From Oscillospiraceae bacterium (GTDB taxonomy: Bacteria > Bacillota > Clostridia > Oscillospirales > Oscillospiraceae), in NCBI GenBank assembly GCA_031261585.1, contig JAISJJ010000141.1, positions 1-49,273 on the forward strand: a stretch of DNA of 49,273 nucleotides, in the 5' to 3' direction. The position numbers were made by a program, and so were the translations under genes. The notes beneath the pieces were generated by a model. That model was not told where the DNA came from and did no database searches. It saw only the letters and a list, made by a program, of their open reading frames with translations. Shown here piece after piece: positions 10,616-47,027 of this stretch; the stretch's first letter is position 1; every line of letters starts with the position of its first letter.

Positions 10616-10790
10616 GGAGACGGGGGCTGGGACGCGGAAAAACGCCCTGTGACAAAGGTCTTGTGAAATGTAGTGTCCTCGGGCATTACATTCCGCAAAA
10701 CATCGGCATCGGGCGGCGCAAAGTTGTGACATACGGACAAATTGGCGGCGAATAGAGTGAGTGGAGAACAATCACGGGGGTTTACCTATA

Positions 10791-11486
10791 ATGCTCACTT
10801 TCACCATCGCCATGCTGCTCGCCGCGCCGATACTCATGCTGCGGCTCGACGGCAGTTCGTTCAAACAACCGCTGAAGCCCGACGAGGAGCGCGAGTGCCT
10901 GCGCCGTCTCGCGGAGGGTGACGAGGAAGCGCGGCTCACGCTGATCGAGCGCAACATGCGTCTCGTCGCGCACATCGTCAAGAAGTACTACGCCAACGAG
11001 ACAGACCGCGAGGATCTGATCCAGATCGGCGCGATCGGGCTGATCAACGCGATCGGCACGTACAAACCCGACAAAAAGGTCGCGCTGTCGACGTATGCGT
11101 CCACGTGCATCGAGAACGAGATACGCATGCACTTCCGGCGCGGCAGAAAGCGTCAGGGCGACCAGTCTCTCGACGAGCCGCTCGACAATGACCGCGACGG
11201 CAACCCGCTCACGCTCGGCGAGTTGCTGATGCACTACGACAACACAGACGAGAAGATCACCGCCGAGGAGTCGCGCGAACGCCTGCTGCGCTATCTGCGC
11301 GAGGAACTGAATCCGACCGAGCTGAAAATTCTCATCGCGCGCTACGGCATAGGCGGCGCGCCCGAGCAGACCCAGCGCGAGGTAGCGGCGGACTTGGGCA
11401 TCTCACGCAGCTACGTATCGCGCATAGAGAGCCGCGCGGTAGGGAAGCTGAGGGAAAGATTCGCATCAGAGGACGATGTCAATTAA
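10791..11486 (+). CDS. sigK: RNA polymerase sporulation sigma factor SigK-like, uninterrupted
   Basis: SFKQPLKPDEERECLRRLAEGDEEARLTLIERNMRLVAHIVKKYY...DLIQIGAIGLINAIGTYKPDKKVALSTYASTCIENEIRMHFR. Confidence 0.85.
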   Translation: MLTFTIAMLLAAPILMLRLDGSSFKQPLKPDEERECLRRLAEGDEEARLTLIERNMRLVAHIVKKYYANETDREDLIQIGAIGLINAIGTYKPDKKVALSTYASTCIENEIRMHFRRGRKRQGDQSLDEPLDNDRDGNPLTLGELLMHYDNTDEKITAEESRERLLRYLREELNPTELKILIARYGIGGAPEQTQREVAADLGISRSYVSRIESRAVGKLRERFASEDDVN

Positions 11487-11587
11487 CAATTAACAATGAA
11501 CAGTTAACGGGAATAAGACGAGGGTTGCGGCTAAACCGCAACCCCCGTCTTTAACTGTTCATTGTTAATTGTTAACTGTTAATTGAC
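11480..11587. repeat. Short heptamer-bounded element between convergent sigK and amt; likely bidirectional terminator
   Basis: CAATTAACAATTAACAATGAACAGTTAA / TTAACTGTTCATTGTTAATTGTTAACTGTTAATTG ends; core GACGAGGGTTGCGG-ctaaa-CCGCAACCCCCGTC. Confidence 0.8.
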
Positions 11588-13297
11588 GTCATCGTCTTGC
11601 AGTGCGTCGAAGCCGCTCTCTCCTGTGCGGACTTTGACCACGTCCTCTACGTCGTAGATGAAAATCTTGCCGTCGCCGACGTTGCCCGTGTACAACGCTT
11701 TTTTGACGGTTTCGACGAACGTATCGGTCGGTATCGCGGAGATCACGATGTCGAGCTGGATTTTCGGCAGTAGCTTCGTCTCGACGGGTACGCCGCGATA
11801 CACCTCAGTGTGACCCTTTTGCATACCGTAGCCGAGGACGTTCGTGACCGTCATACCCGTGATGCCGAGCGTGTCGAGCGCGCTTTGCAGCACCGCGAAC
11901 TTCGACTGATTCGTGATGATCGTGACTTTGGTGAGCTTCGCGCCGGGACGCGCGGTGTTTGTGACGGGGATCGCGCTGTCAATCGGGACAGCGTTTATCA
12001 GCGGAACGGTGATGCCCTCGGGCAGGAGCTCTTCGGGGGCAAACACGAAGCCGCCGTACGCGGAGGACAGACCGTGTTCCGGACCGTCGAGACCCGCGAT
12101 TTCCTCTTCAGGCTTGACACGCAGACCAACCGTCTTTTTGATGATTAAGAATACAATCGTCATGACGACAGCCGTCCACGCGAGAATCGCGAGAACGCCG
12201 ATAGCTTGAATGCCGATCTGGTGTCCGCCGCCGCCGTAGAACAGACCTGCGACACCGGAGGTTGTTCCCGCGTCCTGCCCGGGAACGTTCGGGTTTGCGA
12301 GCAGACCGACCGCGATTGTGCCCCATAGTCCGTTTGCGCCGTGAACCGCAATCGCGCCGACGGGATCGTCTACCTTGACCTTGATGTCGATTACTTCGAC
12401 CGCGACGACGACGAGAATGCCGGCGACGAGACCGATAATCAGCGCGCCGAGTGCGTCAACGTTCGCGCAGCCCGCCGTGATTGCGACGAGACCGGCGAGC
12501 GAGCCGTTCAGGCACATCGAAACATCCGGTTTGCCGTTCTTGATCCAGGTGAACAGCATAGTGGCGACCGTCGCGACGGCGGGGGCTATCGTGGTGTTCA
12601 CCAGAATCGCGCCGAGCTGCTCGATGTTGCCGGCAGCCGCGCCGTTGAAGCCGTACCAGCAGAACCAGAGGATAAACGCGCCGAGCGCGGCGAGCGTTAT
12701 CGAGTGGCCGGGGATTGCGCGCGCCGTGGTTTTGCCCGTCTTTTTGTCCTTGATGTACTTGCCGATGCGCGGTCCGAGAATCGCCGCGCCGATTAGCGAG
12801 GTCAGACCGCCGACCATGTGGATAACGCTCGAACCCGCGAAGTCAACGTAGCCGAGGTTCGCAAGCCAGCCGCCGCTGCCCCACACCCAACCTGCCTCGA
12901 TGGGGTACACGAACAGCGAGATAACGCCGGAGTAGATGCAGTAGGAGACGAATTTCGTGCGCTCGGCCATCGCGCCGGACACGATTGTCGCGGCGGTGGC
13001 GGCGAACACGAGCATGAAGAAGAAGTTCGAGCCGTCCGTCTCCGCCCAACCGAGGAAGTCGGTGAACACGCGCAGGTCGGGTTTCCCGATAAGCCCGAAG
13101 AACACGTGGTCGCCCGCGAGCAGCCCGTAGCCGAGGAGTACGAACACGACCGTGCCGATACAGAAGTCCATGAGGTTCTTCATGATGATGTTGCCCGCGT
13201 TTTTCGCACGCGTCAGGCCGGTTTCGACCATCGCGAAGCCGCCCTGCATGAAGAAAACGAGAATCGCTCCGAGTAAGAACCAAATACTGAAGTCCAT
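11579..13297 (-). CDS. amt: Ammonium transporter (Amt) with C-terminal PII-like domain
   Basis: N-terminal WFLLGAILVFFMQGGFAMVETGLTRAKNAGNIIMKNLMDF (Amt); C-terminal TKVTIITNQSKFAVLQSALDTLGITGMTVTNVLGYGMQKG...GDGKIFIYDVEDVVKVRTGESG (GlnB/PII). Confidence 0.93.
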   Translation of the reverse strand: MDFSIWFLLGAILVFFMQGGFAMVETGLTRAKNAGNIIMKNLMDFCIGTVVFVLLGYGLLAGDHVFFGLIGKPDLRVFTDFLGWAETDGSNFFFMLVFAATAATIVSGAMAERTKFVSYCIYSGVISLFVYPIEAGWVWGSGGWLANLGYVDFAGSSVIHMVGGLTSLIGAAILGPRIGKYIKDKKTGKTTARAIPGHSITLAALGAFILWFCWYGFNGAAAGNIEQLGAILVNTTIAPAVATVATMLFTWIKNGKPDVSMCLNGSLAGLVAITAGCANVDALGALIIGLVAGILVVVAVEVIDIKVKVDDPVGAIAVHGANGLWGTIAVGLLANPNVPGQDAGTTSGVAGLFYGGGGHQIGIQAIGVLAILAWTAVVMTIVFLIIKKTVGLRVKPEEEIAGLDGPEHGLSSAYGGFVFAPEELLPEGITVPLINAVPIDSAIPVTNTARPGAKLTKVTIITNQSKFAVLQSALDTLGITGMTVTNVLGYGMQKGHTEVYRGVPVETKLLPKIQLDIVISAIPTDTFVETVKKALYTGNVGDGKIFIYDVEDVVKVRTGESGFDALQDDDVN

Positions 13298-13402: not shown

Positions 13403-13616
13403 CAATTGACAATTGCGGGAATTGGACGGGGTCTCCCTCCGCCGTCTGCGGACGGCACCTCCCTCTGAGAGGGAGGCTTTTTTGGAACGCATCGCCCGAG
13501 CCTCCCTCATAGAGGGAGGTGCCGCCGAATGGCGGCGGTGGGAGTATACGTAACTCTCGTCCTACCTACGTATCTGTTAACTGTTACTTGTTAATTGTTA
13601 ATTGTTAACTGTTATA
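13403..13616. repeat. Composite palindromic repeat element with heptamer ends
   Basis: CAATTGACAATTG left; TTAACTGTTACTTGTTAATTGTTAATTGTTAACTGTTA right; internal GCCGTCTGCGGACGGC and GAGGGAGGTGCCGCCGAATGGCGGC. Confidence 0.8.
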
Positions 13617-15696
13617 TCACCGAGTACAAAATCTCGCCGTATGTCGGCAGGGGCCACCAGTCGGAGCCTACTGTCAGTTCGAGTTCGTCTACGACGATGC
13701 GCAGTTCCGCCATCGCGGTGAACACGCGCTCACGGAACGCGAACGCGGCGTCTACGCTGTCCTCGATGCCGTGTACGTCGATCAGTGCGGTTTCGAGCGC
13801 GCTGAGCTTCGTGTACAGCTCGTTGGCGAGTGCGGAGACCTTCGCGCCGAGCTTCTTCTGCGCCGTGGGTTCGCCGAACGCGCTGACGGCGGCGACGGTG
13901 GCGGCGAGTTCGGTGAGATAGCCGTTGACGGCGGGGATAATCTTCTGGTTCGCGAGGTCGATGAGCGTCAACGCCTCGATGTTGATCGTTTTCGCGTAGT
14001 TTTCGAGGTAAATCTCGTGTCGCGACTCGATCTCCTTGTGCGTGTACACGCCGTGGCGCACGAACAGGTCGACGTTCTGCTCGGTGAGGTACTTCACGAG
14101 TGCTTCGGGCGTGGTTTTGAGGTTCGACAGACCGCGCTTCTCGGCTTCTATGACCCACGCGTCGTCGTAGCCGTTGCCGTTGAAGATGATGCGGCGGTTT
14201 TCGAGAATCGTCGCCTTGACGAGCCGATTCAGGTCGCCGATGAAGTCGGTCGACGCTTCGAGCTGGTTCGCGAACTCGTCGAGAATGTCGGCGACGGCGG
14301 TGTTCAGTACGACGTTCGGCTCCGCAATCGACTGCGACGAGCCGAGCGCGCGGAACTCGAACTTGTTACCCGTGAACGCGAACGGCGACGTGCGGTTGCG
14401 GTCGGTCGTGTCTTTCGGGAAGTGCGGCAGAACCGTCGCGCCGATCTCCATGCTGACGTGTTCGACGCCGACGTACGGTGTGCCGTCTGCCAGCGCGTCG
14501 AGTACGCCGCCGAGTTCCTCGCCGAGGAAGATCGAGATGATGGCGGGCGGTGCTTCGTTCGCGCCGAGACGGTGATCGTTGCCCGCCGACGCGACGGAGA
14601 TACGCAGTAAATCCTGATATTTGTTGACCGCTTTGATGACCGCGACGAGGAACAGCAGGAACTGCGCGTTCTCGAACGGCGTGTCGCCGGGGTCGAGCAG
14701 GTTCTGTCCGTTGTCGGTCGAGATCGACCAGTTGTTGTGCTTGCCCGAGCCGTTGATGCCCGCGAACGGCTTCTCGTGCAGCAGACACGTCAGCCCGTGG
14801 CGGTCGGCGACCTTGCGCATCAGCTCCATCGTGAGCTGGTTGTGGTCGGCGGCGATGTTCGTCGTCGAGAATATCGGGGCGAGCTCGTGCTGCGCGGGCG
14901 CGACCTCGTTGTGCTTCGTTTTCGACAGTATACCGAGTTTCCACAGCTCCTCGTCGAGGTCGTGCATGTACGCCGCGATCTGCGGTTTCAGCGCGCCGAA
15001 GTAGTGGTCCTCAAGCTCCTGACCTTTCGGCGGGCGCGCGCCGACGAGGGTGCGACCCGTGTAGATGAGGTCGGGGCGTTGCAGATACACGTCTTTGTCG
15101 ATGATGAAGTACTCCTGCTCGGGTCCGACGGTCGTGAGAACGCGCTTCGGTGCCGTGTTGCCAAACAGCTTCAAGATGCGCAACGCCTGCTTCGATATCG
15201 CGTCCATCGAGCGCAGGAGCGGCGTTTTCTTGTCCAACGCCTCGCCTGTGTACGAACAGAACGCGGTCGGAACGCACAGCGTGCCGTCCTTGATGAACGC
15301 GTAGCTTGTCGGATCCCACGCGGTGTACCCGCGCGCTTCAAACGTGGCGCGCAGACCGCCCGACGGAAACGAACTCGCGTCGGGTTCGCCGCGCACAAGC
15401 TCCTTGCCCGAGAACTCCATGATAACGGTGCCGTCGCCCTGCGGCGAGATGAAACTGTCGTGCTTCTCGGCGGTGATACCCGTCATCGGCTGGAACCAGT
15501 GGGTGAAGTGCGTCGCGCCCAGCTCCGTCGCCCAGTCTTTCATCGACGCGGCGACGACGTTCGCGACGTCGAGTTCGAGGTGCGAGCCCTCTTTAATCGT
15601 CTTTTGCAGAGCGCGGTAGATATCCTTCGGCAGCCGCGCTTTCATCACGGTGTCGTTGAAAACGAGGCTTCCGAACAGTTCAGGGACGTTTGACAT
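13612..15696 (-). CDS. glnN: Glutamine synthetase type III (GlnN family)
   Basis: 694 aa; [65 protein letters not shown]. Confidence 0.93.
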
Positions 15697-17164: not shown

Positions 17165-17384
17165 CGTAGCTCCCGTCCAACCCTTGCCTCCCTCGTGGAG
17201 GGAGGTGCCGACCGCAGTCGGCGGAGGGAGGACGCGCCGAGACGTTCCGTCTCGGACTCCCCCTGTCACTGCGTGACATCCCCCTCTGTGAGGGAGACTT
17301 AGGGACGCGAGGACGCGTTGGTAAGGTTTGCGCCCGCAACCCTCGTCCTAACTGTTAACTGTTAATTGTTAACTGTTAATTGTC
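17165..17384. repeat. Composite palindromic repeat ending in a heptamer array
   Basis: CCTCCCTCGTGGAGGGAGGTGCCGACCGCAGTCGGCGG...TAACTGTTAACTGTTAATTGTTAACTGTTAATTG (17349-17384). Confidence 0.8.
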
Positions 17385-20992: not shown

Positions 20993-21008
20993 AGAAGGCT
21001 CCTTGTAA

Positions 21009-21093
21009 GAGGTTAGATGTTAGAGGTTGGAGGTTAGAGCGTGGTTAAGGTTGCGGCGGCGCGGTGTTCCCGTATCTAACATCTCACCTCTAA
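21009..21093. repeat. Heptamer-bounded element of a second sequence class (GAGGTTA)
   Basis: GAGGTTA GATGTTA GAGGTTG GAGGTTA (21009-21036) and inverted ATCTAAC ATCTCAC CTCTAAA (to 21093). Confidence 0.7.
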
Positions 21094-21103
21094 AATCTTC
21101 GTT

Positions 21104-21123
21104 ATTGTTTCACGTGAAACAAT
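21104..21123. promoter_or_regulatory. parS: parS site (consensus TGTTTCACGTGAAACA)
   Basis: Perfect palindrome ATTGTTTCACGTGAAACAAT. Confidence 0.93.
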
Positions 21124-25382: not shown

Positions 25383-25410
25383 CAAAAATGTTTCACGTGA
25401 AACATTTTTG
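25383..25410. promoter_or_regulatory. parS: parS site upstream of parA
   Basis: 28-bp perfect palindrome CAAAAATGTTTCACGTGAAACATTTTTG. Confidence 0.95.
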
Positions 25411-27872: not shown

Positions 27873-29159
27873 ATGTTAGACATCGCCCTTATCCGCTCAG
27901 ACCCCGACCGCGTCGTCGAACTCCTGCAACGCAAGGAGGCGGACTGCCGCGCCGACATCGACCGCATACTCGTACTCGACGTGGCGCGCCGCGAGCTGAT
28001 CGCGACATCGGAGAACGACAAGGCGGAGCAGAACCGCGTCTCGAAGCAGATACCCGCGATGAAAAAGGCGGGGGAGGACACGACGGCGGTTTTCGCGCAG
28101 ATGAACGCGCTCAAGGACGAGATTCGCGTCGCCGAGACGGAACTGCGCGCCGTCGAGGACGAGTTCAACGACCTCATGGCGGGTCTGCCGAACCTGCCCG
28201 ACGACGATATCACGGCGGGCGGCAAGGAGAATAACGAGCCGATCCGCTACTTCGGAGAGCCGCACACGTTCGACTTCCCGCCGAAACACCACGTCGATCT
28301 ATGCACCGACCTCGGGCTCATCGACTACGAGCGCGGCACAAAACTCGCGGGCTCGGGGTTCTGGGTCTATCGCGGCTTGGGCGCGCGGCTCGAGTGGGCG
28401 TTGCTCAACTATTTCATCGACACGCACCTCGGCGACGGGTACGAACTCATTCTCGTGCCGCACATGCTCGAATACGAGTGCGGTTACACGGCGGGGCAGT
28501 TCCCGAAATTCGCCGACGAGGTGTACAAGATCGCGAACCCGACGGACGACCGCGTACACTATATGCTCCCGACCGCAGAAGCCGCGCTCGTGTCCCTGCA
28601 CCGCAACGAGATTTTGCCGGAAGCCGAGTTGCCGCGCAAATACATTTCGTATACCCCGTGCTTCCGACGCGAGGCGGGATCGTACCGCGCGGACGAGCGC
28701 GGCATGGTGCGCGGACACCAGTTCAACAAGGTCGAGATGGTGCAGATCACCACGCCCGAGCAGTCCGACGCGATGTTCGAGGAACTCGTCGGCAAGGCGG
28801 AAAGGCTCGTCTCGGGTCTCGGGTTCCACTTCCGCACGGTGAAGCTCGCGGCGGGCGACGTCAGCTCCGCGATGGCGCGCACGTACGACATCGAGATACA
28901 AATCCCGTCGATGAACGGCTACAAAGAGGTGTCCAGCGTCTCAAACGCGCGGGAATATCAGGCGCGGCGCGGCATGATCCGTTTCCGCCGCGAGTCGACG
29001 GGCAAAGTCGAGTACGCGCACACGCTGAACGGCTCGGGTCTCGCCACGTCGCGCATACTCCCCGCGCTCGTCGAGCAAAATCAACGCGCGGACGGCAGCG
29101 TCGTGATCCCCGAGGTACTGCGTCCGTATCTCGGCGGACTGGAACTGATAACAAAATAA
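27873..29159 (+). CDS. serS: Seryl-tRNA synthetase
   Basis: MLDIALIRSDPDRVVELLQRK; YISYTPCFRREAGSYRADERGMVRGHQFNKVEMV; EVSSVSNAREYQARRGMIRFRRE. Confidence 0.96.
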   Translation: MLDIALIRSDPDRVVELLQRKEADCRADIDRILVLDVARRELIATSENDKAEQNRVSKQIPAMKKAGEDTTAVFAQMNALKDEIRVAETELRAVEDEFNDLMAGLPNLPDDDITAGGKENNEPIRYFGEPHTFDFPPKHHVDLCTDLGLIDYERGTKLAGSGFWVYRGLGARLEWALLNYFIDTHLGDGYELILVPHMLEYECGYTAGQFPKFADEVYKIANPTDDRVHYMLPTAEAALVSLHRNEILPEAELPRKYISYTPCFRREAGSYRADERGMVRGHQFNKVEMVQITTPEQSDAMFEELVGKAERLVSGLGFHFRTVKLAAGDVSSAMARTYDIEIQIPSMNGYKEVSSVSNAREYQARRGMIRFRRESTGKVEYAHTLNGSGLATSRILPALVEQNQRADGSVVIPEVLRPYLGGLELITK

Positions 29160-29245
29160 CGCCCGTAGGGGCGGGGTAAACCCGCCCTTTACGCAAAACA
29201 TGAGCAAGGGCGGGTTTACACGCCCCAAAAAACGGAGGTGCCGCA

Positions 29246-29989
29246 ATGTCGGACGGATATTTGACCGTGGAATCCGCGATGACGGACGGTTTGCGCGCGC
29301 TCGGTCTCGACGGTGTTGATATCGCGGCGTTCCGCGTGTATTACGACGCGCTCGTGTTCGAGAACGAGCACCAGAACCTGACGACAATCACCGCCGAACC
29401 CGAAGTGGCAAGTCTGCACTTCCTCGACTCCCTCGCAATACTACCCCACATCGACCGTAACCCTCGTCCCCAATTGTCAACTGTCAACTGTCAACTGTCA
29501 ATTGTCGACATCGGTTCAGGCGCGGGTTTTCCCGGGCTGCCTATCGCGATTGCGCGCCCCGACTACGCCGTCACGATGCTCGACGCGCGCGAAAAACGCG
29601 TCGACTTCCTGCGTGACACAATAAAACAGCTCGGAATCACGAACGCCACGGCAACCCACGGTCGCGCGGAGGAATACGCCGCGGCGGCGCGCGAATCGTT
29701 CGATATCGCAGTCTCCCGAGCCGTCGCGAACCTGCGCGAACTGGCGGAACTGTGCCTGCCGCTCGTGAAAATCGGCGGTACGTTCCTCGCGATGAAATCG
29801 CGCGGGTCGGACGCGGAGATCGCCGCATCGTCGAACGCAATCGCCACACTCGGCGGCGCACCCGCTGAAATCGTAGACTACACGTTGCCCGACGGCACGC
29901 CGCGCCGCATTGTAGTAGTGCGCAAAATCGCGGCGACACCGCCGCAGTATCCGCGACGGTACAAAAAAATCGAGACACAACCGCTGTGA
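29246..29989 (+). CDS. rsmG: 16S rRNA (guanine527-N7)-methyltransferase with a repeat-derived insertion
   Basis: YDALVFENEHQNLTTITAEPEVASLHFLDSLAIL, VDIGSGAGFPGLPIAIARP, ELCLPLVKIGGTFLAMKSRG; insertion RNPRPQLSTVNCQLSI. Confidence 0.93.
   Translation: MSDGYLTVESAMTDGLRALGLDGVDIAAFRVYYDALVFENEHQNLTTITAEPEVASLHFLDSLAILPHIDRNPRPQLSTVNCQLSIVDIGSGAGFPGLPIAIARPDYAVTMLDAREKRVDFLRDTIKQLGITNATATHGRAEEYAAAARESFDIAVSRAVANLRELAELCLPLVKIGGTFLAMKSRGSDAEIAASSNAIATLGGAPAEIVDYTLPDGTPRRIVVVRKIAATPPQYPRRYKKIETQPL
29456..29507 (+). repeat. In-frame heptamer repeat inside rsmG
   Basis: GTAACCCTCGTCCCCAATTG(TCAACTG)x3 TCAATTGTC; same GTAACCCTCGTCC flank as the intergenic array at 34854. Confidence 0.85.
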
Positions 29990-30955: not shown

Positions 30956-33900
30956 ATGAAAGCGTTAACGTCCGCAATACTGTCCGACGCGGTTCTGCGC
31001 CGCGTCGTCAATTCCCCGAAATCAGGTGGGTGTCCCGCCGTGATTTCGGGGCTTAGTGCCGTGGCGCGCGCGCAACTGCTCGCGTCGATACGCGCGGAGG
31101 GCAATACAACATTATATATAACGTCTGACGAACTCGAAGCGCGTCGGGCAGCGTCCGACTTGACCTCGCTCACGGGCGAGACCGTGACCATACTGCCCGC
31201 GCGCGACTACATTTTCCACGATGTGGAGGGTGCGTCACGCGACTGGGAACAGTTGCGGTTACGGACGTTGTACGAGATAACGGACGGTGCGGACATCGTC
31301 GTCACGACGGCACCCGCGCTCATGCAGCGGAGTGTTTCACGTGAAACGTTTATCCGAAATGTAATCGAGATCGTACCGCGCGACAGCTACAACATCGACG
31401 CGCTGTGCGACGCGTTATCACAATGCGGATACTCACGCGCCGAGCAGGTCGAGGGTCGCGGACAGTTCGCGCGTCGCGGCGGTATCCTCGATTTCTACTC
31501 GCCCGCGCACGAAAACGCCATACGCTGCGAATTTTGGGGCGACGACGTGGACTCGCTCACGTACTTCGACGTGAACACCCAACGCCGCACCGAAAACTGC
31601 GACCGCGCACTGATCCTCCCCGCGCGCGACGCGCTCATCACCCCGCAGAACACCCCGAAACTCATCGCCGCGCTCGAATCGCTCATCTCCGCCACCTCAA
31701 CGCGCGGCACCCGCGCAACCACGCTCCGCACACGGCTGCAATCCGACATTCAGCGGCTGAACGACGGGCGCGGACTGCCCTCCGCCGACCGCTACATGGA
31801 ACTGCTCGACGGATTCGCAACCGCGCTTGACTTCCTGCCGCGCGGCATGGTCGTCCTCATCTCCGAGCCTAACCGTGTGCGCGAATCCGCCGAGCGGTAC
31901 GAGACGCGCATCGCCGAGGACATCGTGCCGCTGCTCGAATCGGGCGCGATTGAACAGTCGCTGAACCGCTTCTCGCTCGGTGTCGAGGATTTTTTCTCCG
32001 CACTCGCCGATTTTCCCGTCGTCATGGCGGACAGTTTCACCGTCTCAAACTACCCGCTCACGCCGCGCACTCTGCTCTCGACGCTCACAAAGCAGCTCCC
32101 GAGCTACGGCGGCAGTCTCGACACCGCCGCCGCCGATTTGGCGCACTACGCGTCGCAGGGGTACCGCGCTGTCGTCGCGGTGTCGAGCGCGGCACGCGGT
32201 GGCGCACTCGCGGAGTTTTTGCGCGACCGCGATGTCGCGGCGACATACACCGAATCGCTCGAAACACTGCCCGAATCGGGTCTGTGCGCGATCACACTCG
32301 GCGCGCTGTCCGCGGGCGTGGAGTACCCGAACATCAAACTCGCGGTGCTGACCGAGGGGCAGATCGTCGAGCGCGCCGCGCCGCGCCGCCGCAAGTCCGC
32401 AAAACCGTCAAACCGCCAAAAACTCATGAGCTACACCGACCTCAAACAGGGCGATCTCGTCGTCCACGACACGCACGGGATCGGGCGGTACGCGGGGTTG
32501 CACACGATGACCGTCGACGGCGCGCCGCGCGACTACATCAAGATCGCGTTCCGCGACGGCGACAGCGTCTATATCCCCGCGACACAGCTCGACGTCGTGT
32601 CAAAATACATCGGCGGCGGCGAGAACGCGGAGATTCGCCTGTCAAAACTCGGCGGCGTGGACTGGACAAAGACGAAGTCCCGCGCCCGAGCGTCCGCCCG
32701 CGATATGGCGGCGGAACTCACGAAACTCTACGCCGAACGTCAGCGCGCGCGCGGACACGCGTTCGCCGACGACCCGATATGGCAGCGCGAGTTCGAGGAC
32801 GCGTTCGGCTACGAGGAGACGGACGACCAACTGCGCAGCACCGACGAGATTAAGCGCGACATGGAAAGACCCGTGCCGATGGACAGAATACTCTGCGGCG
32901 ACGTGGGTTTCGGCAAGACCGAGGTCGCTCTGCGCGCCGTGATGAAGTGCGTACTCGACGGGTATCAGGCGGCAATCCTCGTGCCGACGACCGTCCTGTG
33001 CAGTCAGCACTACACGACGGCGATGAAGCGTTTCGCGGGCTACCCCGTCAACATCGAGACGCTGTCCCGCTTCCGCACGCCCGCCGAGACGCGCCGCGCG
33101 TTGCAAAACATCGAATCAGGCACGTGCGACCTCGTCATCGGCACACATCGCCTGCTGTCGAAAGATATAAAATTCCACAAACTCGGTCTGCTCGTCGTCG
33201 ATGAGGAACAGCGTTTCGGCGTGGCGCACAAGGAGCGGCTGAAAGAGATCGCGAAGCGCGTCGACGTGCTCACCCTGTCCGCAACGCCGATACCGCGCAC
33301 GCTGAATATGGCGTTGTCGGGCATACGCGACATGTCAACAATCGAGGAACCGCCGACAGGTCGCGTCCCCGTCCAAACCTACGTCATGGAGCACGATTGG
33401 GGCGTTCTGCTCGACGCAATGAGCCGCGAACTCGCGCGCGGCGGTCAGGTCTACTACCTCCACAACCGCATCGAGACGATAGAGCGCGTCGCCGCGCGCA
33501 TATCCGACACGTTAAACCCCTCCGTAGGGGGCGATGTCCACATCGCCCCAACCGTAACCGTCGCCGTCGCACACGGGCGCATGGACGAGGAGAGCCTGTC
33601 CGACGTGATGGAGCGCGTGTCCGACGGCAGCGTGCAGATTTTAGTATGCACGACGATCATCGAGACGGGCATCGACATTCCTAACGTCAACACGCTGATA
33701 ATAGAGGACGCGGATCACATGGGTCTCGCGCAGTTGCACCAGATACGCGGTCGTGTCGGTCGCAGTCCCCGCCGCGCGTTCGCGTACCTCACGTTCAAGC
33801 GCGGCAAGGTGCTGAGCGAGGTCGCGGAAAAGCGTCTCGGCGCGATACGCGAGTTCGCGGAGTTCAACTCCGGTTTCCGCATAGCCATGCGCGACCTTGA

Positions 33901-34468
33901 GATACGCGGCGCGGGTAATCTGCTCGGCGCGGAGCAGTCAGGTCACATGATGAAAGTCGGGTACGACATGTACCTGCGCCTGCTCGAAGAAGCCGTTCTT
34001 GAGGAGCGCGGCGAGACCCCGAAACCGCGCACGGTAACGAGTGCCGACCTCGCCGTCACGGCTCAGCTCCCCGCAAAATACGTGCCGTCGGGCGACCAGC
34101 GTCTCGACCTGTACCGCCGTATCGCGCGCGTGAAAACCGAGGAGGACGCGGACGAGATGATCGCCGAACTCATCGACCGCTACGGCGACCCGCCCGACGA
34201 GGCTCTCGCGCTGATCCGCATAGCCCGTCTGCGCGCCGACGCGGCGGAACTCGGCATCACAGACATCACGCAAAAGGGCAAACTCCTGCGCCTAAAGCTC
34301 GAATCGTTCGACGCCGCCGCGATAACGTCCCTCTATGCCCAACCGCAGTTCAAAGGTCGCATAAAAGTAGAAGCAGGCAGTGTAGCCGCAATCGCCCTAA
34401 GATTGAACAACGACAGTCTGACAGACGCCGAGGAACTGATAAGATGCTGGCAGGGGCTGGGCAATTGA
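30956..34468 (+). CDS. mfd: Transcription-repair coupling factor
   Basis: 1170 aa; GDLVVHDTHGIGRYAGL; MDRILCGDVGFGKTEVALRAVMK; LLVVDEEQRFGVAHKERLKE; QLHQIRGRVGRSPRRAFAYL. Confidence 0.96.
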   Translation: MKALTSAILSDAVLRRVVNSPKSGGCPAVISGLSAVARAQLLASIRAEGNTTLYITSDELEARRAASDLTSLTGETVTILPARDYIFHDVEGASRDWEQLRLRTLYEITDGADIVVTTAPALMQRSVSRETFIRNVIEIVPRDSYNIDALCDALSQCGYSRAEQVEGRGQFARRGGILDFYSPAHENAIRCEFWGDDVDSLTYFDVNTQRRTENCDRALILPARDALITPQNTPKLIAALESLISATSTRGTRATTLRTRLQSDIQRLNDGRGLPSADRYMELLDGFATALDFLPRGMVVLISEPNRVRESAERYETRIAEDIVPLLESGAIEQSLNRFSLGVEDFFSALADFPVVMADSFTVSNYPLTPRTLLSTLTKQLPSYGGSLDTAAADLAHYASQGYRAVVAVSSAARGGALAEFLRDRDVAATYTESLETLPESGLCAITLGALSAGVEYPNIKLAVLTEGQIVERAAPRRRKSAKPSNRQKLMSYTDLKQGDLVVHDTHGIGRYAGLHTMTVDGAPRDYIKIAFRDGDSVYIPATQLDVVSKYIGGGENAEIRLSKLGGVDWTKTKSRARASARDMAAELTKLYAERQRARGHAFADDPIWQREFEDAFGYEETDDQLRSTDEIKRDMERPVPMDRILCGDVGFGKTEVALRAVMKCVLDGYQAAILVPTTVLCSQHYTTAMKRFAGYPVNIETLSRFRTPAETRRALQNIESGTCDLVIGTHRLLSKDIKFHKLGLLVVDEEQRFGVAHKERLKEIAKRVDVLTLSATPIPRTLNMALSGIRDMSTIEEPPTGRVPVQTYVMEHDWGVLLDAMSRELARGGQVYYLHNRIETIERVAARISDTLNPSVGGDVHIAPTVTVAVAHGRMDEESLSDVMERVSDGSVQILVCTTIIETGIDIPNVNTLIIEDADHMGLAQLHQIRGRVGRSPRRAFAYLTFKRGKVLSEVAEKRLGAIREFAEFNSGFRIAMRDLEIRGAGNLLGAEQSGHMMKVGYDMYLRLLEEAVLEERGETPKPRTVTSADLAVTAQLPAKYVPSGDQRLDLYRRIARVKTEEDADEMIAELIDRYGDPPDEALALIRIARLRADAAELGITDITQKGKLLRLKLESFDAAAITSLYAQPQFKGRIKVEAGSVAAIALRLNNDSLTDAEELIRCWQGLGN
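31333..31348. promoter_or_regulatory. parS: parS-like site inside the mfd coding sequence
   Basis: TGTTTCACGTGAAACG, 15/16 match to TGTTTCACGTGAAACA. Confidence 0.8.
33528..33549. repeat. In-frame palindromic repeat inside mfd
   Basis: GGGGCGATGT-CC-ACATCGCCCC, 10-bp perfect arms; resembles intergenic GTAGGGGCGATTATCAATCGCCCG. Confidence 0.75.
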
Positions 34469-34888
34469 CAATTAACAATGAACAATTAACAGTTGACGGG
34501 GGTTGGACGGTGGGACGCGGGGGAACAAACCCCCGCCGTCTGCGGACGGCACCCCCTTTGCGATAGGGGGCGGGGTTGGACGTGGGTTACGTGACCTCCC
34601 ACCGCCGCCGGTCGGCGGCACCTGCCTCTGTGAGGGAGGCTTGGACGGCGCGTGCCAAAAATGCCTCCCTCTCAGCGGGAGGTGCCGTCCGCAGACGGCG
34701 GAGGGAGCCCTCCGTCCAAACGTCCCTCGTCCCCGCCCCCTTTCGGAAAGGGGGTGCCGACCGCAGTCGGCGGGGGTTTGCCCCCCGTTCCCGAAAAGTG
34801 CGCCGCAACACAAAACGAGGACGAGGGTCGCGGCATAGCCGTAACCCTCGTCCTTAACTGTTAACTGTTAATTGTTAACTGTTAATTG
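34462..34888. repeat. Large composite palindromic element with heptamer inverted ends
   Basis: Left CAATTGACAATTAACAATGAACAATTAACAGTTGAC; right TTAACTGTTAACTGTTAATTGTTAACTGTTAATTG; internal GCCGTC/GCCGCC stem modules. Confidence 0.85.
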
Positions 34889-34993
34889 CCCCCGTCCCCT
34901 CCCGTCTTTCACCGTATTATAATCCAAATTTAATACTGCTCCGTTGATAAATGTGCTACAATATACAAAATCATGCACACAAAGGAGCCGCCC

Positions 34994-35458: not shown

Positions 35459-37434
35459 AAAAGGCGAAATTCATCACGGGTGCCGTGCTTATTCTCGTTA
35501 CGCTCATCGTCGCGGGCGAGATTTACACGTGGCACCTCTCGAGCTTCAGCCAGACGGGTTACACGGGTGTTCAGTTGTACGCAGCACCCGACGACACGCG
35601 CGAGAGTATGCTTGCGGACATCGCCGTCGCCGCCGAGGAGAATGGTGTCGGCGTTTTCTGCGTTGACCGAAAATCCGTCAACATGTTCGCGGAGCGGCTG
35701 AACATCTATGCGACGGACATCGCGGCATCGTCGCTCACGCACCGCGCACAGATTCGCGAGGGTACGTTCGCGGGGCTGGTTATCGGCTCGACAGAGGTCA
35801 AAATCCTACCGTTCGGCGACGCGCCCGAACTCTCGACGCTCACAGAGGGCGACACGGTATACGTCGTCGGCACGTCGGCGCAGATTCGCGCGTTTTGCGG
35901 CGACACGGCGGCGGATTACGGCGCAAACACGCCGCGCATGTTCCTGAACGGGCGCGACACGGAGAAAATCTACGTCGCCGCCGTGTGGATAATCGTGCTG
36001 ATTCTCCTGCTGCTGCTGACGCAGTTTGAGATTGATCTGCTGAAAAAAGAGGTCGCCGTGCGCCTGATTTACGGCGAGAGTTTGCGCGATATCATTGCGC
36101 GGAATTTAATAACGGACGCGGCGGTGTTCGTCGCCATGCCGACGGTTTTGATGTTCGCGCTGTCGCCGCTGACGAACACGTTTTACGCAGTTGACGCGGC
36201 GATGATCGCGCTCGGTGCGTTCCTGTTGCTCAATTCTGCGTCGCATCTGCGGCTGTACGCCGTGGATTACAAGCGCGATATCGCGACGCGCGCGGGCGCG
36301 AAAGGCACGCTGCGCTCAGCATACGCGTTCAAGGTCGTGACCGTGATTCTCGCCGTCGCGATACTCGCGGGCAACATCGGCATGATATCGGGCGCGCTGA
36401 GTTTTCGCGGTCTGCGCGGATTTTTCGAGGAGCGCGCGGACTACGCCTACGTGAACATCTGGGACAGCTCGATGTTTGACCACGAGACAGGCGATATTGA
36501 CGACAGCGTTGTGCGGGAGTTTCACCGCCGCGCGTCACTCGCGGGCGACACGCTCGCGCTCGTCTACCTCGGCAACTGGATTCTCGGCGGTATCGAGTAC
36601 GTGTACGCCGACAGCGGCGCGGCGGAGTATCTGCAATCGGAGATACCCGAACTGCGCGGCGCGACGCTCGAAAATAAGGTCTACTTCATAGTCCCCGAGA
36701 AGTACGCCGAACGCGCCGACGTTGCGGACGAGATGCGCGAGGTGTGGTGGGGTTACTCGGAACTATCGGCATATCCAAACGGCGAAACGTACGCACAGGA
36801 CGATTTCGATGTCGCGGTCGTCCCGTACAGGCGCGCGAACATTGTCGCGATGACGCGTGACGAGACGGTGCGCGGCGGGCGCGTCCCGTCGCCGATTATC
36901 ATCTTCAACAACACGGATAAGCAGGGGTACAACGACTATATCCAACAGTCGACGATGTACCGCGTCACGGAGACTGAGTTCCGCGCGTTTCTCGCGGAGA
37001 TGAGCGTCGGCGGCACCATGAGCCACCGCACGGGCGCGCTCGACAACTACGATTACCAATGGCAGGTCGAGAAAAAGACGCTTATCGTCGCCGTCGTCAT
37101 GCTCGCGCTGATTCTCGCGCTCGAATCGGTCGTCATACGCACGATTCTCAAATTCGAGTACCGCGTCTACGCGGCGGAACTCGCGCTGAAAAAGGTGTAC
37201 GGTCACACGCTGTTCGCGCGGCACCGCAAGATTATCCTCACGACGGCGATTCTCGGCATAGTGAGCCTCGTCGGTTCGCTCATCGTGTGCCGTCTCCTGA
37301 AATCCGCCGCGCTCGTGAACGTGGCAATCGGCGGCGTAATACTGCTCGCGATCGAGCAGGCGTTCATCGCCGCGAGCATACGGCGCGTCGAGAGACGCAA
37401 TATCCAGCGCATTTTGAAAGGTGAAGCGGTATGA
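35455..37434 (+). CDS. Bacteriocin-associated integral membrane protein-like (DUF1430/FtsX-like permease)
   Basis: 659 aa with N- and C-terminal TM blocks; adjacent to the ABC ATPase. Confidence 0.65.
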   Translation: MKKAKFITGAVLILVTLIVAGEIYTWHLSSFSQTGYTGVQLYAAPDDTRESMLADIAVAAEENGVGVFCVDRKSVNMFAERLNIYATDIAASSLTHRAQIREGTFAGLVIGSTEVKILPFGDAPELSTLTEGDTVYVVGTSAQIRAFCGDTAADYGANTPRMFLNGRDTEKIYVAAVWIIVLILLLLLTQFEIDLLKKEVAVRLIYGESLRDIIARNLITDAAVFVAMPTVLMFALSPLTNTFYAVDAAMIALGAFLLLNSASHLRLYAVDYKRDIATRAGAKGTLRSAYAFKVVTVILAVAILAGNIGMISGALSFRGLRGFFEERADYAYVNIWDSSMFDHETGDIDDSVVREFHRRASLAGDTLALVYLGNWILGGIEYVYADSGAAEYLQSEIPELRGATLENKVYFIVPEKYAERADVADEMREVWWGYSELSAYPNGETYAQDDFDVAVVPYRRANIVAMTRDETVRGGRVPSPIIIFNNTDKQGYNDYIQQSTMYRVTETEFRAFLAEMSVGGTMSHRTGALDNYDYQWQVEKKTLIVAVVMLALILALESVVIRTILKFEYRVYAAELALKKVYGHTLFARHRKIILTTAILGIVSLVGSLIVCRLLKSAALVNVAIGGVILLAIEQAFIAASIRRVERRNIQRILKGEAV

Positions 37435-38045
37435 TTAAGATTGAACATCTCACGAAAAAGTTCGGCGAACGCGTGCTGTTCGAGGACTTCGACCTCGATA
37501 TCGCGGACGGCGAGTTCGTGATATTCTCGGGCGTGTCGGGCAGCGGCAAGACGACGCTGCTGAACATGGTCGGCGCGCTCGAACCCGTCGCGTCGGGCAA
37601 GATTTTTGTGGACGGCACCGACGTGAGCGTGCGCCGCAACCAACTCCGCTACTTCTCGGAGACGGCGGGATTCCTGTTCCAGAACTTCGCGCTCATCGAG
37701 GACAAGACGGTAGCGGAAAACTTGAACATCGTGCGCAAAACCAACCGCTCTGGCGTGTCTGTCGACGACGCGCTCGCCCGCGTCGGTCTGTCCGACAAGC
37801 GCGATTCCAAGGTGTACACGCTCTCAGGCGGCGAACAGCAGCGCGCCGCGCTCGCCCGCCTGATGATAAAAAAGTGCAGGCTGATCCTCGCCGACGAGCC
37901 GACGGGTTCCCTCGACCGAGCAAACGCCGACGCGGTGATGGCGATTCTGCGCGAACTGAACGACAGCGGCAAGACCGTGATCGTCGTGACGCACGACGAG
38001 GGGATCAAACGCAGCGGCGGGCGAGTGGTGGAGATTGACAATTAA
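37431..38045 (+). CDS. ABC transporter ATP-binding protein, bacteriocin-export type
   Basis: [33 protein letters not shown] Walker [33 protein letters not shown]. Confidence 0.92.
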
Positions 38046-38430
38046 CAATGAACAATTAACAGTTGACGGGGGTTGGACGTGAGAGCGCGAGGACGAGGGA
38101 TTGGACGAGGGAACAAACCCCCGCCGTCTGCGGACGGCACCCCCTTTCCGAAAGGGGGCAAGGACGAGGGACGATGGACGGGGGCTCTCCCTCCGCCGAC
38201 TGCGGTCGGCACCTCCCTCCAAGAGGGAGGCTTTTTGGAACGCATCGTCCAAGCCTCCCTCATAGAGGGAGGTGCCGCCGAAAGGCGGCGGTGGGAGGTC
38301 ACGTAACCCCCGTCCAACCCCGCCCCCTTTCGGAAAGGGGGTGCCGCTCGCAAGCGGCGGGGGTTTGTCCCCCGTCCAACGTCCAAACCCCCGTTAACTG
38401 TTAATTGTTCATTGTTAATTGTTAATTGAC
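38034..38430. repeat. Composite palindromic element with heptamer inverted ends
   Basis: GACAATTAACAATGAACAATTAACAGTTGACGGGGG / CCCCCGTTAACTGTTAATTGTTCATTGTTAATTGTTAATTGAC; internal GCCGTC, GCCGAC, GCCGCC and GCCGCT stems. Confidence 0.88.
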
Positions 38431-41464: not shown

Positions 41465-42397
41465 ATGGCTATTCATAACAAATCGCATAACAATCATGCT
41501 TTAATGTCACTGAACAAAATGCGCAAAGATAATAGCACGAAACAAAAAAGCGCAAAAGACTTTGATAAATTTGGCGAAACAAAGATTTTAATTAGTATAA
41601 TGGATTGTTGCGACTTCTTAAAAGAATTGCCCGATGAATGCGTGCAAATGATTTGTATTGATCCCCCCTATAATCTTGAACTCACAGGTTGGGATATTTA
41701 TGAAAACTATATTGAATGGGCGGCAAAGTGGTTGGAAGAAGCGTATAGGGTTTTGTCAAAGAACGGAAATATGGTAATATTTGGAGGAACGCAATTTCGT
41801 GATGCGAAATCAGGTGACTTAATTGATATAATTCAATATGTTAGACGAAATACGAAATTTAAGCTGATTAATACAATCGTTTGGTATTACAAAAATGGTA
41901 TGTCTGCACACAGATACTTTGCTAATAGGCACGAGGAAGTAATTTGGTTGGCAAAGTCTAATGACTATTATTTTGATTTGGATTCCGTTAGAGTTCCGTA
42001 TTCAGAAGAAGATTTGAAGCTTGCATTAAAGGACAAACGACTGAATCCTGAAAATACAATGAAAGGTAAAAATCCTACTAATGTTTGGCAAATTGGTCGA
42101 CTAAATGGGAATAGCAATGAGCGCGTGGGACACCCGACACAAAAGCCCGTTGAGATTGTTGAACGCCTTATCAAAGCCCTTTCATGCCGAAGCTCGGTTG
42201 TTCTTGATTTTTTTGCAGGAAGCGGGACTGTCGGCAGAGTATGTATTGCCGAGGGTAGGCATTGCCTGTTGTGCGATAGTGATAAGTCTACACTTGATTA
42301 CTTTACAAAGCACATTGAACAGATGAGAAACTTAGGCAAAGATACAAGCCATATAGAGGTAGAAAGCATAAATGAGTTTTTCAAGGCTAATGTCTGA
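41465..42397 (+). CDS. Type II DNA adenine methyltransferase, M.RsrI-like
   Basis: QMICIDPPYNLELTGWDIYENYIEWAAKWLEEAYRVLSKNGNMVIFGGTQF; YKNGMSAHRYFANRHEEVIWLAK; RLNGNSNERVGHPTQKPVEIVERLIKAL; VVLDFFAGSGTVGRVC. Confidence 0.92.
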   Translation: MAIHNKSHNNHALMSLNKMRKDNSTKQKSAKDFDKFGETKILISIMDCCDFLKELPDECVQMICIDPPYNLELTGWDIYENYIEWAAKWLEEAYRVLSKNGNMVIFGGTQFRDAKSGDLIDIIQYVRRNTKFKLINTIVWYYKNGMSAHRYFANRHEEVIWLAKSNDYYFDLDSVRVPYSEEDLKLALKDKRLNPENTMKGKNPTNVWQIGRLNGNSNERVGHPTQKPVEIVERLIKALSCRSSVVLDFFAGSGTVGRVCIAEGRHCLLCDSDKSTLDYFTKHIEQMRNLGKDTSHIEVESINEFFKANV

Positions 42398-42434
42398 AAG
42401 AATATAATGTTATCGTAAGGAGCTAATTGGTGTT

Positions 42435-43274
42435 ATGAAAAAAAGACAATCAAATAGATTAACAGAACAACAAAAAGAGGGACAGGGACCTATTTCGATT
42501 TTTCACGCAGATGCCCAAGAGCACGATAAAGAAGTGAATAGTACTTCAATTATTGCTATGCAGCGACTTTATGCCAAATTTCCAATGCTGGCGTTCAGAT
42601 ACAGGAAAGACCTTCAAAAAAAAGAAATTAACGAATCTTTACAAAAGATTGATAAATACCTTGGGCAAACGCTTTTTGTCGAAAATGCCAGTATAAAGCC
42701 CGATGGCGGTATAATCGAAGTTAAAGATGATAATGGAAACTGGCGGGTGGTGTTGATTTCAGAAGCCAAGCACCAAGGGAAAGACATTGAGAATATTGCA
42801 AAAGGCATTCAAGTTGGTGTAAAAAGCAATCAAGATACAATGGTTGCCGGAAATGCTATTGAGAGGGCACACAAAAATATCAACGAAATAGCAAACTATA
42901 TGTTAGGCGAACGTCACTTCCCATATATATTATTTTTAGAAGGCTCAAATTTTTTAACGCAAAATGTTGATATTACGCGCCCTGACGGGAGAACTGTAAC
43001 ATTAGTCTATAATGCTGGTGGACTTAATCGGCTTGACAGGCTGACAGCTGCAAATTACGGTATGCCAATAAATACGAATCTATGTGAAAATAGATTTGTG
43101 CTATGTAATGGCGCAAGTGTCATGTTACAAGCCACGTCGATTTACACCAAGGGCGAGGGCGGGCATTGGAATTCCGAGGATATGACCGATATTATGCTTG
43201 AAGTTGCCCAAACTTCTCTAAAAGTGTTAGGAAAAGATCTTTTCGGGCAACTTAGTATGAACGCCGATACATAA
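42435..43274 (+). CDS. Type II restriction endonuclease, EcoRI family
   Basis: KKRQSNRLTEQQKEGQGPISIF; SIKPDGGIIEVKDDNGNWRVVLISEAKHQGKD; GNAIERAHKNINEIANYML; HFPYILFLEGSNFLTQNVDITRPDGRTV; NRLDRLTAANYGMPINTNLC. Confidence 0.93.
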   Translation: MKKRQSNRLTEQQKEGQGPISIFHADAQEHDKEVNSTSIIAMQRLYAKFPMLAFRYRKDLQKKEINESLQKIDKYLGQTLFVENASIKPDGGIIEVKDDNGNWRVVLISEAKHQGKDIENIAKGIQVGVKSNQDTMVAGNAIERAHKNINEIANYMLGERHFPYILFLEGSNFLTQNVDITRPDGRTVTLVYNAGGLNRLDRLTAANYGMPINTNLCENRFVLCNGASVMLQATSIYTKGEGGHWNSEDMTDIMLEVAQTSLKVLGKDLFGQLSMNADT

Positions 43275-43614: not shown

Positions 43615-43774
43615 ACGTAGGGACGGACGACCCCGTCCGTCCTGTATTCTGCATAACCATACAAGGACGGACAGGGTCGTCCGTCCCTACGCACGAGACC
43701 GCGACGCGAATCAAACGCAACCCTCGTCCAAACCCTCGTAACTGTTAACTGTTAATTGTTAACTGTTAATTGAC
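43615..43774. repeat. Repeat element: GTAGGGACGGACGACCCCGTCCGTCC inverted pair plus heptamer array
   Basis: GTAGGGACGGACGAC...GTCGTCCGTCCCTAC arms; TAACTGTTAACTGTTAATTGTTAACTGTTAATTGACC at 43739-43774. Confidence 0.8.
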
Positions 43775-44963
43775 CAACCGCCGCGTCGAACCTCGGGTCT
43801 CCGCGCAACGGGTCGAACTGCGGATTTTCCGCGTACATGCGCGCGATTGCACCGATGTCTACAACGCTGAAATGCGCGCCCGTGCCGTCGTTCTGCCGCT
43901 CGTGAGTGGCGAGCGTGTACTGCACCGCACGCTCTAAGTAGCCGATTGCGCGCTCCGCATCGAACGGTGCGAGGTACCGCGCGCAGTCCTCGCAGTGGTG
44001 GAGTTGCGCGGCGATATCGCCGTCCTCGATCATGCGCACGATAACCGCGCGCGTCTCGGGGTCGAGGTCGGGATTGTCCTCGGGCGCGCCCGTACTCGGC
44101 ACGAACCGACTGAACGGCAGCAGCTTTTCGCGCAGTTCGAGCATCGCGACGGTCTCGTCGCGGTCGAGCGTGCCGCGCCGCAATTTCTCCTGCAACACGA
44201 TGCGAATACTCTCCTGCAAATACCCCGTGAAACCGGGGACAAACTGCCGCAATCGCTCGAACTGCGCGTCGGGCAGACCGCCGTTCTCGTAATTCGCGCT
44301 CGCGTAGTTGTTGAGCAGCCGCAGCAGCAGACCCTCGCAACTCTCGGACATATGCGGCAACTCCTCCGCCGCCGCTACCAGCTTGTCGAGGTCGCCGAGC
44401 GTACCGTACACGTCCGCGCGGCGCGACAACGCCGTGTACCGCGTCGCGCTGTCCGTACAGTTCGCGAGCACCTTGTCCAACACATCGATTGCGTCGTTCA
44501 GCCGCTCTGTTTTGCGCATGTCGGACGTCAGACGCGCCGCGTACTCGATTTGCAGCTCGTAATGCGTCGGAAACTCGCGGATGATGTCGCGGTACATGCC
44601 GTACAACCGCTCGTTGAACTCCGCCATGTCCGCGTCCGCCGTTTCGTCGAGCTGTGTGATGGCTATCGGGTTCGGATTCGAGCTCATGCGCGCGAACTGC
44701 TCCTGAAACATGTCGGTGACGCGCTGCTGAAAGTCCGCGATGCGCTGTTCGTCGCGGAAACGCTCCATGCCGATAAGCTCGTCGACCGTGACGGCGAAAC
44801 AGTTCGCGAGCGCGGGCAGCATATCCATGTCGGGGTAGCACGCGCCCAACTCCCACCGCGACACCGACTGCGGCGACACGTCGAGAATCTCCGCAAGCCG
44901 CTCCTGCGTCATCTCGCGCTCCCGACGCAGCCGTTTGATGTTCTCCGCAATGCCGATTTTCAT
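43752..44963 (-). CDS. XRE-family HTH regulator with TPR-like C-terminal region (paralogue 4)
   Basis: MKIGIAENIKRLRREREMTQERLAEILDVSPQSVSRWELGACYPDMDMLPALANCFAVTVDELIG; C-terminal GQLTVNN encoded by the heptamer array. Confidence 0.9.
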   Translation of the reverse strand: MKIGIAENIKRLRREREMTQERLAEILDVSPQSVSRWELGACYPDMDMLPALANCFAVTVDELIGMERFRDEQRIADFQQRVTDMFQEQFARMSSNPNPIAITQLDETADADMAEFNERLYGMYRDIIREFPTHYELQIEYAARLTSDMRKTERLNDAIDVLDKVLANCTDSATRYTALSRRADVYGTLGDLDKLVAAAEELPHMSESCEGLLLRLLNNYASANYENGGLPDAQFERLRQFVPGFTGYLQESIRIVLQEKLRRGTLDRDETVAMLELREKLLPFSRFVPSTGAPEDNPDLDPETRAVIVRMIEDGDIAAQLHHCEDCARYLAPFDAERAIGYLERAVQYTLATHERQNDGTGAHFSVVDIGAIARMYAENPQFDPLRGDPRFDAAVGQLTVNN

Positions 44964-45100
44964 CGTCTCCCGCCTTTCGTGATGTGATAACGGCATTATA
45001 TCACACCGAGCAGGATTTTCAAGCGCGCGAAACGAGAGATTTATTCACGCAGGACGTGAGGGGTAAAGGCGGCGGCGCGAGAAATGTGTTGATAATTTGG

Positions 45101-45878: not shown

Positions 45879-46013
45879 TCTCTACGCCAACCAACCACCC
45901 AAGCACCCTGTAAAACAGGGTGCTTTCGCTTCACCCCAAAAAAGGAAAACCCCGTCCCAAACCGTCGCACGCACCCTCGTCCAATCCTCGTAATTGTCAA
46001 TTGTCAATTGCCA

Positions 46014-46853: not shown

Positions 46854-46999
46854 TTCATACCTTTCACAGCACATTATGTAGATAAATTGGTGTTTTACAC
46901 ATGGATTTTACACCATATCTTGTGCGCGGAACGTCTGTTTTTGTCGAGCGGGGGAAAGATATATTTTTGTTGAAATAGGCGGTGATGTGTGGTAATATA

Positions 47000-47027
47000 G
47001 AGGTCAGATGTGAGATGTCAGAGGTTA
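47000..47027. repeat. Four GAGGTTA-class heptamers upstream of ychF
   Basis: GAGGTCA GATGTGA GATGTCA GAGGTTA. Confidence 0.65.

What the first reader, a model, noticed from the sequence alone, without database searches (positions are those of the whole stretch)
29441..29535. Dispersed heptamer repeat inserted in frame in rsmG next to the SAM-binding motif
Seen: rsmG contains GTAACCCTCGTCC followed by CAATTG(TCAACTG)x3 TCAATTGTC, the same flank and 7-bp period as the intergenic arrays (compare 34841-34888). It encodes RNPRPQLSTVNCQLSI directly before VDIGSGAGFPG. Compared with remembered B. subtilis RsmG, the loop before the SAM motif is about 9 residues longer. The intergenic unit TTAACTG carries TAA; the genic copy uses TCAACTG, removing every stop. 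Inference: the element entered an essential-type gene and was retained as a stop-free variant, analogous to Rickettsia palindromic elements.
Basis: partly seen in the sequence, partly recalled or inferred. Interest (0 to 1): 0.85.

Follow-up and report, generated by a model that had tools for sequence, protein, structure and literature searches.

The report
Dispersed heptamer repeat inside rsmG loop
A short repeat that this bacterium carries in over a hundred places, usually right at the ends of genes, has one copy inside the gene for a ribosomal-RNA methyltransferase, where it is read as an apparently harmless extra surface loop; this resembles known cases of selfish repeats tolerated inside genes, in a bacterial group where I found no earlier report.

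Summary
rsmG (29246-29989) contains a copy of a dispersed YAAYTGT heptamer array plus its upstream motif, read in frame as RNPRPQLSTVNCQLS just before the SAM motif.

Nine congeners with a readable loop lack this peptide, including G004, whose genome is also full of these arrays. The loop is 30 residues here against about 20 across the family. AlphaFold places it in a low-confidence surface coil of an otherwise confident RsmG fold. It is a tolerated in-frame insertion or replacement.

One correction: the stop-free TCAACTG form is not special to rsmG, since 44 of 147 sampled arrays consist only of it. Nor is rsmG unique: in-frame copies sit in seven other recognisable genes of G000 and G004, and G005 carries a different dispersed palindromic repeat in the same RsmG loop.

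Following the family gave a stronger result. Outside genes the arrays sit at native stop codons in one fixed orientation and supply or touch the stop of about 13% of sampled genes, without truncating proteins.

It works like Rickettsia palindromic elements but fails their defining palindrome. The nearest sequence relatives, the TAACTGA repeats of Beggiatoaceae, sit before start codons. Verdict: new variant of a known kind.

The parts
29246..29989 (+). rsmG (gidB), 16S rRNA m7G methyltransferase, 247 aa, single full copy in the genome
   Evidence: Pfam GidB 5.5e-46; PDB 1xdz 1.8e-45; only full match in own genome
29456..29470 (+). upstream motif CGTAACCCTCGTCCC of the repeat, encoding RNPRP
   Evidence: GTAACCCTCGTCC occurs 26 times in 882 kb of own genome, 5 of them directly before an array
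29471..29505 (+). heptamer array of 5 units (YAAYTGT), all TCAA type
29456..29500 (+). repeat-coded peptide RNPRPQLSTVNCQLS, residues 71-85, surface coil before strand beta-1
11479..11506 (-). array at the stop of the sigma-factor gene 10761-11486; forms an outward pair with 11552-11586
11552..11586 (+). array supplying the stop region of the ammonium-transporter gene 11579-13297 (ends QDDDVN)
13571..13612 (+). array touching the stop of the glutamine-synthetase gene 13612-15696
17349..17383 (+). array touching the stop of the cobalamin adenosyltransferase-like gene ending at 17383
34461..34495 (-). array at the stop of mfd (30956-34468); left arm of an outward pair
34855..34889 (+). intergenic array with the same CCGTAACCCTCGTCC flank, preceded by a strong hairpin; right arm of the pair
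38038..38065 (-). array at the stop of the ABC ATPase gene 37431-38045
38395..38429 (+). array forming an outward pair with 38038-38065
43739..43773 (+). array inside which the regulator gene 43752-44996 ends (GQLTVNN)
45991..46011 (+). array at the end of the ParB-like gene 46014-46874

Best explanation
A copy of a dispersed repeat (a short motif ending in CCTCGTCC plus an array of about five YAAYTGT heptamers, about 50 nt) entered the loop of RsmG just before the first strand of the methyltransferase core, in a recent ancestor of this species. It replaced a few native residues and kept the frame. A 7-bp unit reads the same heptapeptide in all three frames, and the TCAA units carry no stop on the sense strand, so this copy could be translated whatever the phase. 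The loop is a flexible surface segment of variable length across bacteria, so the protein tolerates it. Retention is passive: purifying selection removes copies that stop or shift genes and leaves the few that are open and fall in loops, linkers or tails. Most copies of the family lie at stop codons, where they also act as stop donors. Shown: the repeat identity, the frame, the absence in congeners, other genic copies, and the stop-codon placement. Inferred: tolerance by the protein, replacement of native residues, passive retention. Unknown: the enzyme or recombination process that copies the element.
For: Same flank plus array as intergenic copies. 147 arrays in 882 kb of own genome, modal size 5 units. 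Nine congeners with a readable RsmG loop lack the peptide, including array-rich G004. Loop segment is 30 residues here; 76 of 88 RsmG segments have 19-24, and 15 of 19 further family loci have 20. AlphaFold model mean pLDDT 92.6, residues 71-80 averaging 61, coil between helix 66-71 and strand 85-89. In-frame copies also occur in an Fe-S/NAD oxidoreductase, a radical-SAM protein linker, HrcA and FtsK tails (G000), DnaX and SpoIIP linkers and RNase M5 (G004), all recognised by Pfam; in each the reading avoids stops through TCAA units or a variant unit. G005 carries a different dispersed palindromic repeat in frame in the same loop, so the site tolerates insertions.
Against: The nearest congeners are only about 41-64% identical in RsmG, so the exact ancestral loop is not known and the insertion is reconstructed, not seen. 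The genome is a draft of 161 contigs and reads could not be inspected. No target-site duplication or mobilising enzyme was identified: Y1 (RAYT-type) transposases exist in G000 (two) but not in array-rich G004.
Confidence: 0.82

Rival explanations
1. The peptide is ordinary variation of a length-variable loop, and its likeness to the array is low-complexity convergence.
For: The loop does vary: 27-37 residues in several Clostridia without any known repeat, and G001 has a 51-residue segment whose insert is not dispersed.
Against: The DNA match includes the 13-15 nt flank as well as five heptamer units. Arrays of this kind do not arise in shuffled sequence.
Confidence: 0.04
2. The genic copy is an assembly or binning artefact: a repeat-induced join in a draft genome.
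For: Draft of 161 contigs with hundreds of similar arrays; reads not available.
Against: The frame is open and coding-like on both sides. Both halves align to one RsmG at normal identity. The gene order serS-rsmG-mfd is continuous. The array with flank is about 50 nt, shorter than usual reads. The same kind of copy occurs in seven other genes of two genomes.
Confidence: 0.06
3. The peptide has been co-opted and is functional, for example in tuning RsmG binding to the ribosome or as a regulatory signal in the mRNA.
For: It is kept in frame with no decay, next to the catalytic domain. The last array unit encodes I86-V87 at conserved hydrophobic positions of strand beta-1.
Against: The model gives low confidence there. 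The copy's RNA fold is weak (z -1.6). No congener shares it. The same loop takes unrelated inserts in G005 and G001.
Confidence: 0.08
4. The arrays are primarily functional 3'-end elements (mRNA hairpin or stop reinforcement) kept by selection at stop codons, and the rsmG copy is stray spill-over. This concerns the family and is compatible with the best explanation for the rsmG copy.
For: 106 of 806 genes end at an array, against about 2% at random positions. Orientation is fixed. Orthologue pairs with an array in only one member keep their C-termini within -5 to +5 aa. Shared placement at orthologous ends is 8 against 3.2 expected, p=0.003. TTAA-type arrays fold into a hairpin with z about -3 to -3.5.
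Against: Patchy distribution (7 of 151 family genomes) and absence in most congeners argue against a general function. A targeting preference at stop codons would give the same picture. The sampled contigs were chosen because they carry arrays.
Confidence: 0.3

Closest known systems
TAACTGA direct heptamer repeats of Beggiatoaceae, Cyanobacteria and Bacteroidetes (MacGregor 2015, PMC4679880)
   Same: 7-bp direct repeats in more than a hundred places, few units each, patchy taxonomic distribution, mostly intergenic, with occasional copies inside ORFs and over stop codons; one base different from TAACTGT.
   Different: There the repeats sit mostly just upstream of start codons; here they sit at stop codons. 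Here units vary at two Y positions, the array has a modal size of 5, arrays occur in outward pairs often with a CGTCC flank, and copies lie inside conserved domains and linkers. That paper lists a single TAACTGT doublet in its genome.
Rickettsia palindromic elements (RPE; Ogata 2000, 2002, reviewed in PMC10969869)
   Same: Dispersed repeat copies in frame in unrelated conserved genes, in positions compatible with protein folding.
   Different: RPEs are about 150-bp palindromes encoding a conserved peptide; this is a 35-nt tandem array with a short flank, mostly at gene ends.
CGTC-tagged REP elements (Di Nocera 2013, PMC3733652)
   Same: Short dispersed elements with a CGTC motif at one end, head-to-head pairs, intragenic members, no dedicated transposase found.
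   Different: REPs are single hairpins with unpaired CGTC and a CCA-like tail; here CGTCC abuts a heptamer array and, where a palindrome is present, pairs within its stem.

Membership tests
RsmG (GidB) | GidB Pfam domain and SAM motif I | tested here: met
   PF02527 156.7 bits against cut-off 27; DIGSGAGFPG present
Rickettsia palindromic element | in-frame copies in several unrelated conserved genes | tested here: met
   eight Pfam-recognised genes in two genomes
Rickettsia palindromic element | element is a palindrome of about 100-150 bp forming a long stem | tested here: not met
   genic copy is flank plus direct repeats; fold -6.9 kcal/mol, z -1.6
TAACTGA direct-repeat family | heptamer unit TAACTGA | tested here: not met
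   unit is YAAYTGT; commonest units TAATTGT, TAACTGT, CAACTGT, CAATTGT
TAACTGA direct-repeat family | placed within a few nucleotides upstream of start codons | tested here: not met
   arrays abut stop codons; where the inner gene faces with its 5' end it lies 21-754 nt away in all but one case
CGTC REP | 8-9 bp stem, 4-5 nt loop, unpaired CGTC at one end | tested here: not met
   rsmG copy has no such stem; the palindrome at 34820-34852 pairs its CGTC ends
RAYT-mobilised REP | Y1 transposase gene flanked by the repeat | tested here: inconclusive
   two Y1 genes in G000, one next to an array that also ends its upstream gene; none in array-rich G004

The most novel reading that the evidence does not exclude
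The heptamer arrays are a genome-wide gene-end module: placed or kept exactly at native stop codons of about one gene in eight, giving those genes their stop and a short 3' hairpin, and now and then captured in frame as new loops and linkers (RsmG, DnaX, SpoIIP, RNase M5), so that one repeat family reshapes both transcript ends and protein surfaces.
Probability: 0.3. Interest if true: 0.75.

Novelty: new variant of a known kind. Interest (0 to 1): 0.55.

Why it matters
It extends repeat-in-gene invasion, best known from Rickettsia, to a Clostridia family (Oscillospiraceae-like) and to a tandem heptamer. The 7-bp period gives a simple reason why it can be read through in any frame. The exact placement at stop codons makes a testable link between a dispersed repeat and gene-end formation. 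It also warns annotators that C-terminal tails such as QLTVNN and inner stretches such as QLSTVNCQLS are repeat-derived.

Tried and rejected
RAYT or other Y1 transposase as mobiliser: presence does not track the arrays. G001's long RsmG loop as another dispersed repeat: neither the insert nor its hairpin recurs in that genome. Rfam: no family matches anywhere in the window. A literature search for this heptamer in Clostridia found nothing specific. Slippage as the source of arrays: sizes cluster at five units instead of spreading, though G072 and G017 have longer runs.

Full report
Observation. The sequence at 29456-29507 is CGTAACCCTCGTCC C CAATTG(TCAACTG)3TCAATTGTC, inside the open frame of rsmG 29246-29989. 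The same flank precedes the intergenic array at 34855. Peptide RNPRPQLSTVNCQLS is residues 71-85 of 247. Pfam GidB spans it, and B. subtilis RsmG 1xdz aligns with a 9-residue gap there.

The organism. Names are withheld for the window, but the nearest named RsmG relatives are Oscillospiraceae MAGs, so this is most likely a member of that group of Clostridia.

The repeat family. The unit is YAAYTGT. A three-unit pattern hits 320 times in the whole own genome, 111 times in G004, twice in G007 and never in the nine other genomes of the genus; it is found in 7 of 151 sampled family genomes including the own one. In 882 kb of own contigs, picked because they carry arrays, there are 147 arrays with a modal size of five units; 74 are purely TTAA type, 44 purely TCAA, 29 mixed. 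Neighbouring arrays in opposite orientation always point outward (14 pairs to 0 in the two genomes). The flank GTAACCCTCGTCC occurs 26 times in the sample, five times directly before an array.

The rsmG copy. RsmG was found in ten congeners. Nine have a readable loop and lack the peptide, including array-rich G004; the tenth (G006) is cut off before the loop. The segment from the HFxDSL motif to motif I is 30 residues here. Of 88 RsmG segments, 76 have 19-24, and of 19 further family loci 15 have 20. So 15 repeat-coded residues gave a net gain of about 6 to 10, which points to partial replacement of the old loop. An AlphaFold model built from 44 sequences has mean pLDDT 92.6; residues 71-80 average 61, and coil runs between helix 66-71 and strand 85-89. 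By general knowledge of this fold the segment lies at the start of beta-1, away from the SAM pocket at the strand's end. A confident model is expected from the alignment and does not prove activity.

The same loop in relatives. G005 carries a longer insert there from a palindromic repeat with three further near-full copies at 86-89% identity in its genome. G005 also has an exact parS site read in frame further on. G001 has an insert of similar length that is not dispersed. The loop therefore tolerates insertions of unrelated origin.

Other genic copies. In-frame arrays also occur in a CCG/Fer4 NAD oxidoreductase, between the Zn-ribbon and radical-SAM domains of an HMPTM-type protein, in the tails of HrcA and an FtsK/SpoIIIE protein (G000), and in the DnaX linker, the SpoIIP N-terminal linker and RNase M5 (G004). 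In the sense of the gene, arrays read either as TCAA units (rsmG, oxidoreductase) or in reverse with a variant unit that turns the recurring stop into a sense codon. Any open copy must look like this, so it is a filter and not proof of adaptation.

Where the family normally sits. With a simple codon-model gene caller of my own, 106 of 806 sampled own genes (13.2%) end within -30 to +3 nt of an array's outer edge, mostly at offsets spaced by seven (-22, -15, -8, -1) or at +2. A coding frame stops within -10 to +19 nt of the outer edge for 100 of 140 arrays, against 14 of 735 random positions. The inner side shows no such effect. Among 89 orthologue pairs with G004, arrays at the same gene end are shared in 8 against 3.2 expected (Fisher p=0.0027); pairs with an array in only one member differ at the C-terminus by -5 to +5 residues. 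So arrays lie at native stops without truncating proteins. G072 and G017 show the same quantised offsets in part of their arrays. TTAA-type arrays fold as hairpins (z about -3 to -3.5), the rsmG copy only weakly.

Reading. The rsmG copy is best explained as a tolerated in-frame capture of a dispersed gene-end repeat. Whether arrays at stop codons are targeted there or selected there is open. The closest known things are TAACTGA repeats (PMC4679880), which precede start codons; Rickettsia palindromic elements (PMC10969869), which behave alike inside genes but are long palindromes; and CGTC REPs (PMC3733652), whose hairpin definition is not met.

Limits. Draft genome; no reads; nearest relatives at 41-64% RsmG identity; array-bearing contigs oversampled; gene calls approximate; the copying mechanism not identified.

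Noticed in passing
window 41465-43274: A pair of a DNA methylase ORF (41465-42397) and a close EcoRI homologue (42435-43274; PDB EcoRI at 5.8e-113): an EcoRI-type restriction-modification pair in a Clostridia genome.
   Followed up: partly
window 21106-21121, 25389-25404, 31333-31348: Two exact parS sites (TGTTTCACGTGAAACA) and one with a single mismatch inside mfd, near parA-parB-rsmG.
   Followed up: partly
L045:1965-1980 (G005 rsmG): An exact parS site read in frame inside rsmG of a congener, in a second extra segment of the protein.
   Followed up: partly
L045:1638-1746 (G005 rsmG): A different dispersed palindromic repeat inserted in frame in the same RsmG loop.
   Followed up: yes
L237:1248-1800 (G000 C65): A Y1 (RAYT-type) transposase gene directly behind an array that also ends the upstream GTPase gene.
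   Followed up: partly
window 21008-21039 and 46999-47022; G017 arrays: Other 7-bp tandem arrays (AGAGGTT, AGATGTC; TGATATT next to TAACTGT in G017), suggesting a wider habit of heptamer arrays.
   Followed up: no
window 29155-29240: A further dispersed-looking inverted repeat (GTAGGGGCGGG ... CCCGCCC) between serS and rsmG.
   Followed up: no
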